Shown: positions 32,390 to 32,614 of the stretch, in pieces
How the letters are laid out: each line of letters begins with the position of its first letter
Position numbering within the stretch: the first letter of the stretch is position 1
NCBI GenBank assembly: GCA_031257535.1
Contig: JAIROO010000104.1
Coordinates: forward strand, 1-32,614
Reading direction: 5' to 3'
DNA length: 32,614 bases
Source: Deltaproteobacteria bacterium
Lineage (GTDB): Bacteria > Desulfobacterota > Desulfarculia > Adiutricales > Adiutricaceae
Translations under genes and position numbers: made by a program
The notes under the pieces: generated by a model
Databases searched by the model: none
What the model was told of the DNA's origin: nothing
Seen by the model: only the letters and a program-made list of their open reading frames with translations

Positions 32390-32614
32390 GGTGAACTACC
32401 GCTACCCTGAAGGGTACCGGCTTCCGAAAGGAGGTTGGTTAGGTCACAAGACTAAGGTTTGGAAACAAACCTACGTTGGAAAGGTAATGACGCCCAAAGG
32501 GTCGCCGCCTCAGATCCTGGCGATTGTCGCGACAAGTTAAAGAACTCAAGTGGTGGGAACTGCGCTTACCGTAATAAGCTTTTCCAACTTTGTCGAGAGG
32601 AAGTCCCAAACCTC
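32390..32614 (+). ncRNA. Structured-RNA-like repeat, copy 2 (candidate HEARO / IscB-type omegaRNA, continuing past the window edge)
   Basis: The first 107 nt match copy 1. CTTCC(GAAA)GGAGG, AGGTTTG(GAAA)CAAACCT and GCTTA(CCGTAA)TAAGC hairpins. GGAACTGC and GACGCCC strings recall IscB omegaRNA scaffolds from memory. No ORF within the visible part. Confidence 0.6.

What the first reader, a model, noticed from the sequence alone, without database searches (positions are those of the whole stretch)
32390..32614. Candidate HEARO / IscB-type omegaRNA at the right edge
Seen: a 107-nt block repeated nearly perfectly elsewhere in the window, beginning immediately after GTGA, with stacked hairpins including two GAAA tetraloops, then ~118 nt of further hairpin-forming, ORF-free sequence to the edge. 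Established: HEARO RNAs (HNH Endonuclease-Associated RNA and ORF) were reported to sit after ATGA/GTGA and are now understood as IscB guide (omega) RNAs located 5' of iscB. Inference: the IscB/IsrB ORF may lie just beyond 32614. The guide would then be the sequence left of the junction (...tttttcgaaaatccttaggtga).
Basis: partly seen in the sequence, partly recalled or inferred. Interest (0 to 1): 0.82.

Follow-up and report, generated by a model that had tools for sequence, protein, structure and literature searches.

The report
IscB guide-RNA end of a transposon

Summary
The finding is real and largely correct. Window 32391-32607 matches the whole Rfam HEARO model (RF02033, positions 1-211) at 74.3 bits, E 1.8e-15. 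That is below the curated cut-off of 83, but near-identical sister copies in the same genome reach 86.7-94.2 bits. There are about 20 copies in this genome, each with a different left flank. All sit directly behind GTGA, which at two sites is the neighbouring gene's own stop codon.

Contigs break inside these repeats, so no ORF follows this particular copy. Related copies give the full layout: GTGA | omegaRNA - iscB - tnpA - right end. Gene order in sister species joins two omegaRNA-ended contigs (rpsT, proA) to two tnpA-plus-right-end contigs (ddl, tgt). A relative in the same family carries iscB-tnpA-right end in one piece. Read through its breaks, that protein is IscB (NCBIfam NF040563, 283 bits). 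Copies readable inside here are deletion derivatives: omegaRNA alone, or omegaRNA plus about 40 iscB codons. I found no intact IscB of this subfamily in the bin.

Best reading: left end of an IscB-bearing IS200/IS605 ("ISC") transposon. The kind is known. The added interest lies in nuclease-less copies with intact guide RNAs, and a helix that co-varies with the target tetranucleotide.

The parts
32371..32390 (+). Left flank that would serve as the guide (AATTTTTCGAAAATCCTTAG)
   Evidence: Position immediately 5' of the scaffold; unique to this copy among the left ends read. Guide use is inferred.
32391..32394 (+). GTGA: target tetranucleotide, first half of helix 1, predicted TAM
   Evidence: Same 4 nt at every left end; native stop codon at two other insertion sites.
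32391..32607 (+). HEARO / IscB omegaRNA scaffold
   Evidence: RF02033 1-211 of 211, 74.3 bits, E 1.8e-15.
32395..32614 (+). Left end of the transposon, cut by the contig end
   Evidence: Family alignment of 20 copies; the window is the whole contig C18.
15625..15730 (+). Truncated second copy of the left end (106 nt including GTGA)
   Evidence: 98% over 107 nt, then divergence; HEARO only 23.5 bits.

Best explanation
The right edge of the window is the left end of an IscB-bearing IS200/IS605-type (ISC) transposon, and this left end encodes the HEARO/omegaRNA. The full element is GTGA | omegaRNA - iscB - tnpA - right end. Proposed working: (1) TnpA (Y1/HUH) moves the element as single-stranded DNA to a site just 3' of GTGA, without target duplication. 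(2) A transcript entering from the left flank carries about 16-20 nt of host sequence as guide, followed by the scaffold. (3) IscB bound to it cuts the empty site (guide match + GTGA as TAM) left by excision, so that repair copies the element back. Shown here: RNA family and structure, GTGA target, element ends, gene order, empty sites in sister species, IscB and TnpA family membership in related copies. Inferred: transcription, guide use, TAM, cutting and copying. In this genome most copies readable inside are non-autonomous derivatives without iscB, so their guides would work only with an IscB supplied from elsewhere.
For: Full-length HEARO match with sister copies above the curated score. 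Compensatory changes in the HEARO helices across three genera: 7 pairs with changes on both sides against 2.0 in shuffles. 21 of 54 HEARO matches in the genus followed by IscB on the same strand. Two omegaRNA-ended contigs joined by synteny to tnpA + right-end contigs. iscB-tnpA-right end contiguous in G022. IscB and Y1 families over NCBIfam/Pfam cut-offs. GTGA is the native stop codon at two sites. Empty site of a related element in four sister genomes.
Against: This copy scores below the HEARO gathering threshold. Nothing beyond 32614 is seen. No intact IscB of this subfamily is in the bin. Helix 9 of the model pairs poorly (56%). No expression data.
Confidence: 0.9

Rival explanations
1. 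The omegaRNA is now only a transposon end. TnpA needs the sequence as left-end DNA; the RNA has no guide function in this genome because IscB has been lost.
For: Readable copies lack iscB or keep about 40 codons; IscB fragments in the bin are broken by stops and frameshifts.
Against: Scaffold kept at 97-99% identity with paired changes across genera. Intact relatives of this IscB exist (P0001). A repeated intact iscB would be lost from this assembly, so its absence is weak evidence.
Confidence: 0.4
2. The window copy itself is followed by a full-length iscB.
For: It is the ancestral layout; C75 and C334 show the iscB start behind the same omegaRNA.
Against: Both complete or nearly complete interiors in this genome (types A and B) are deletions; C75's frame already has a stop.
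Confidence: 0.2
3. It is an unrelated structured or coding repeat that resembles HEARO by chance.
For: The window copy is under the curated threshold; a roughly 50-codon frame opens at the GTG.
Against: E 1.8e-15 over the whole model, sister copies over threshold, iscB downstream in relatives, frame broken by indels between copies.
Confidence: 0.01

Closest known systems
HEARO RNA (Rfam RF02033) / IscB omegaRNA
   Same: Full-length consensus structure, 5' start at GTGA, position 5' of iscB in related copies
   Different: This copy scores just under the curated threshold; many copies here have no iscB behind them
ISC elements (IscB-encoding IS200/IS605 transposons)
   Same: omegaRNA - iscB - tnpA order, Y1 transposase, insertion behind a fixed tetranucleotide
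   Different: tnpA is present; a published survey found only a few HEARO nucleases with TnpA (PMC9755519). Strong load of deletion derivatives.
Non-autonomous IS200/IS605 derivatives (MITE-like)
   Same: Short internal-deletion copies keeping both ends (about 365-bp solo form)
   Different: The retained left end is an entire omegaRNA, so each copy could still make a guide

Membership tests
HEARO RNA (RF02033) | Covariance score at or above the curated cut-off (83 bits) | tested here: inconclusive
   Window copy 74.3; same-family copies C179 94.2, C272 89.2, C14 87.5, C75 86.7 pass
HEARO RNA (RF02033) | Full-length consensus structure with supporting covariation | tested here: met
   Model 1-211; 84% standard pairs, 7 pairs changed on both sides
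HEARO RNA (RF02033) | HNH-nuclease ORF (IscB) shortly downstream | tested here: inconclusive
   Not visible for this copy (contig end). Met for related copies: 21 of 54 in the genus, C75 in the same subfamily
HEARO RNA (RF02033) | Insertion behind ATGA/GTGA (recalled from the original description) | tested here: met
   GTGA at every left end; native stop codon at C331 and C184
ISC / IS200-IS605 transposon | Y1 (HUH) TnpA within the same element | tested here: met
   Synteny joins C331-C332 and C167-C216; PF01797 36.9 bits; contiguous iscB-tnpA-right end in G022. Shown for sister copies, not this one.
ISC / IS200-IS605 transposon | IscB with RRXRR/RuvC and HNH | tested here: met
   G022 member of the subfamily: NF040563 283 bits, RRXRR 172, HNH 34. 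Read through breaks; shown for a relative.
ISC / IS200-IS605 transposon | Single-strand peel-and-paste transposition without target duplication | not testable with these tools
   Needs biochemistry; the unduplicated GTGA at gene stops is only consistent with it
IscB guide function | Expressed RNA with 5' guide, TAM-dependent cutting | not testable with these tools
   No expression or cleavage data
IsrB | No HNH domain | tested here: not met
   HNH found in the subfamily protein of G022

The most novel reading that the evidence does not exclude
A genome holding about 20 near-identical omegaRNA left ends, each with its own guide and mostly without iscB, moved by a shared TnpA and served in trans by one IscB kept elsewhere: a dispersed guide network. 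In addition, the first omegaRNA helix has two jobs: it is the TnpA target tetranucleotide paired with its internal reader, so a change of target site forces a change in the RNA scaffold (GTGA/TCAC, GTCA/TGAC, GTAAC/GTTAC in sister subfamilies).
Probability: 0.3. Interest if true: 0.6.

Novelty: new member of a known kind. Interest (0 to 1): 0.45.

Why it matters
It confirms with data a call made from raw sequence. It ties a HEARO omegaRNA to a TnpA and to defined element ends, whereas a published survey found few such links (PMC9755519). The nuclease-less copies with intact guide scaffolds raise a testable question: is an omegaRNA kept because it guides, or because it is the transposon's left end? 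The helix-1 covariation with the target tetranucleotide suggests how target choice by TnpA and guide-RNA architecture may be tied together.

Tried and rejected
Degenerate 35-nt pattern of this omegaRNA in genome contigs: none; the tool notes that records of the window's own or a very near genome may be left out. Search for the collapsed middle of the tnpA-type element in 64 genomes of the class: not found, but it uncovered the related family in G022. Protein-coding reading of the repeat: rejected because of frame-breaking indels. First alignment across all HEARO subfamilies was too mixed for pair counting, so it was replaced by the closer set. IsrB reading: rejected because HNH is present. TnpB-type omegaRNA: rejected because that guide lies at the right end (PMC8612924). 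The tnpA of C257 belongs to a different IS605 element with a broken tnpA followed by a tnpB-like frame. Partner of the window copy's own right end: not identifiable, because its left-flank genes were not traced in relatives.

Full report
WHAT IS THERE. The 107-nt repeat described is real (15624-15730 and 32390-32496, 98%). The 225 nt at the right edge match, whole or in part, at 20 places in the same 3.70-Mb, 362-contig genome bin, most at 97-99% identity. Every copy that reaches the left end starts with GTGAAC and every left flank is different. Many copies lie at contig ends: the assembly breaks inside the repeat. A sister MAG's contig name carries k119 and several contig ends here hold 114-119 nt of the repeat, so a k=119 assembly graph is the likely reason. 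That is why the window stops at 32614.

RNA FAMILY. On 32341-32614 the only Rfam match at E up to 0.1 is HEARO, RF02033, model positions 1-211 of 211, 74.3 bits, E 1.8e-15. The gathering score is 83, so a default scan misses this copy. Members of the same repeat family score 94.2, 89.2, 87.5 and 86.7, so the shortfall is copy-level variation. Placed on an alignment of this subfamily from three genomes (two genera), the HEARO pairs show 84% standard pairs. Seven pairs have changes on both sides (2.0 +/- 0.9 in shuffles; 0 of 500 as high), and sliding the partners drops pairing to 35-47%. Helix 5 alone has three such pairs. Helix 9 pairs poorly (56%). These shuffles do not correct for relatedness, so I rest the call mainly on the Rfam match.

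ISCB NEXT DOOR. In the genus, 21 of 54 HEARO matches have an RRXRR (IscB) match downstream on the same strand, the nearest starting 51-102 nt away; none has one within 1.5 kb on the other strand. In this genome C75 shows it for the window's own subfamily: omegaRNA, then, about 75 nt downstream, the IscB N-terminus in a frame that already has a stop. Joined from contigs, the N-terminus reads MTYVYVLNKNDEPLRPTCPALARIILKSGRAKVVRREPLTI, which hits RRXRR (38.5 bits) and NCBIfam guided_IscB (41.8 bits; a fragment, so below that model's whole-protein cut-off).

ENDS AND INTERIOR. The right end ...CCGCTAGACTAAAGTCTACCGGTTTTCTGCGAAAGATTTTATAAA is shared by at least 15 insertion sites with different right flanks, counting C30 and C208 as one. 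Before it lie: (A) the omegaRNA tail with iscB removed (C283, a complete solo element of about 365 bp; C168); (B) about 40 codons of iscB (C126, C191, C251, C86, C30/C208); (C) the 3' end of a Y1 transposase gene tnpA (C332, C216, C236, C178, C128, C303, C258); and one larger deletion (C352).

JOINING THE HALVES. In five sister genomes rpsT is followed by ddl, and in five proA is followed by tgt, with no element between. In this genome rpsT (C331) and proA (C167) each run into the omegaRNA left end, while ddl (C332) and tgt (C216) each emerge from a tnpA-type right end. So two insertions carry omegaRNA on the left and tnpA on the right. Genome G022 (same family, another genus) confirms the order. 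C55 has GTGA | omegaRNA then the iscB start; C245 has the iscB 3' part, then tnpA, then the same right end in one stretch; C200 has omegaRNA, iscB fragment, a 566-aa foreign ORF, tnpA fragment, right end. The G022 IscB, pieced from C55 and C245 and read through its breaks for searching only, scores 283 bits on NF040563 (cut-off 175), 172 on RRXRR and 34 on HNH, and matches solved IscB chains. An intact 420-aa relative, P0001, begins MTYVYVLNKN and is 78% identical over the 41 residues known here.

TARGET SITE. At C331 (rpsT) and C184 the TGA of GTGA is the host gene's stop codon, at about the place where the orthologues stop (C184: ETWEE* against ETWDN*). Hence GTGA was there before the insertion and the element begins behind it. 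A related element with an intact 431-aa frame in sister genome G006 sits between an ABC ATPase and a permease gene that are adjacent in four relatives, which have GTGA at the site. Across subfamilies the first bases and their partner in helix 1 change together: GTGA/TCAC here and in G022, GTCA/TGAC in a second subfamily of this genome, GTAAC/GTTAC in G003. In IS608-type transposition the target tetranucleotide is read by pairing with an internal guide (my knowledge). I infer that helix 1 of the omegaRNA is also that DNA pairing; this was not tested.

HOW IT MOST LIKELY WORKS. TnpA peels the element off as single-stranded DNA and pastes it 3' of GTGA. Transcripts entering from the left carry host sequence as the guide followed by the scaffold. 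IscB with this RNA cuts the resealed empty site next to GTGA and lets repair restore the element, as argued for TnpB (PMC8612924, PMC11870625). For IscB the 5' guide, the TAM requirement and cutting are established (PMC9640706, PMC9755519). For this subfamily all of this is inference. Upstream genes run in the same direction as the RNA at 15 of 17 scorable sites (with rpsT; two-sided sign test about 0.002, my arithmetic). That would help read-through supply guides, but may equally reflect replication-strand preference.

WHAT IS NOT SHOWN. Whether iscB follows this copy; whether any intact IscB of this subfamily exists in the strain; whether the RNA is made. IscB fragments in the bin are mostly broken, but the assembly would also lose intact repeated genes, so absence is weak evidence.

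VERDICT. The kind is known. The window shows a new member, with extra interest in nuclease-less but guide-bearing derivatives and a documented TnpA partner.

Noticed in passing
L031-L035 (G000 contigs C202, C12, C245, C103, C84): A second HEARO subfamily in the same genome (105-122 bits) starts with GTCA instead of GTGA and has its own decayed iscB behind it.
   Followed up: partly
L193 (G022:C200), 1658-3355: A 566-aa reading frame with an HNH-like HIVPKK motif sits on the minus strand inside an IscB element between iscB and tnpA fragments: possible cargo.
   Followed up: no
G006 (MAG Gx485_bin195): 56 matches to one IscB element, about half of them only the last 60-150 nt of the right end: many right-end fragments of an old family.
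   Followed up: no
insertion sites of G000: Upstream genes run in the same direction as the omegaRNA at 15 of 17 sites; two insertions sit exactly at gene stop codons.
   Followed up: partly
32084-32105: Run of about 20 A near the 3' end of a 355-aa frame (31038-32105, LLHEFVH zinc-protease-like motif): possible slippage or frameshift site.
   Followed up: no
15782-15862 and 16327-16407: An 81-nt direct repeat (95%) just right of the truncated omegaRNA copy, flanking a 128-aa frame.
   Followed up: no
7470-7733: 18-nt tandem repeats coding an Ala/Pro/Thr-rich stretch near the start of a 2217-aa alpha-2-macroglobulin-like protein (1208-7861, minus).
   Followed up: no
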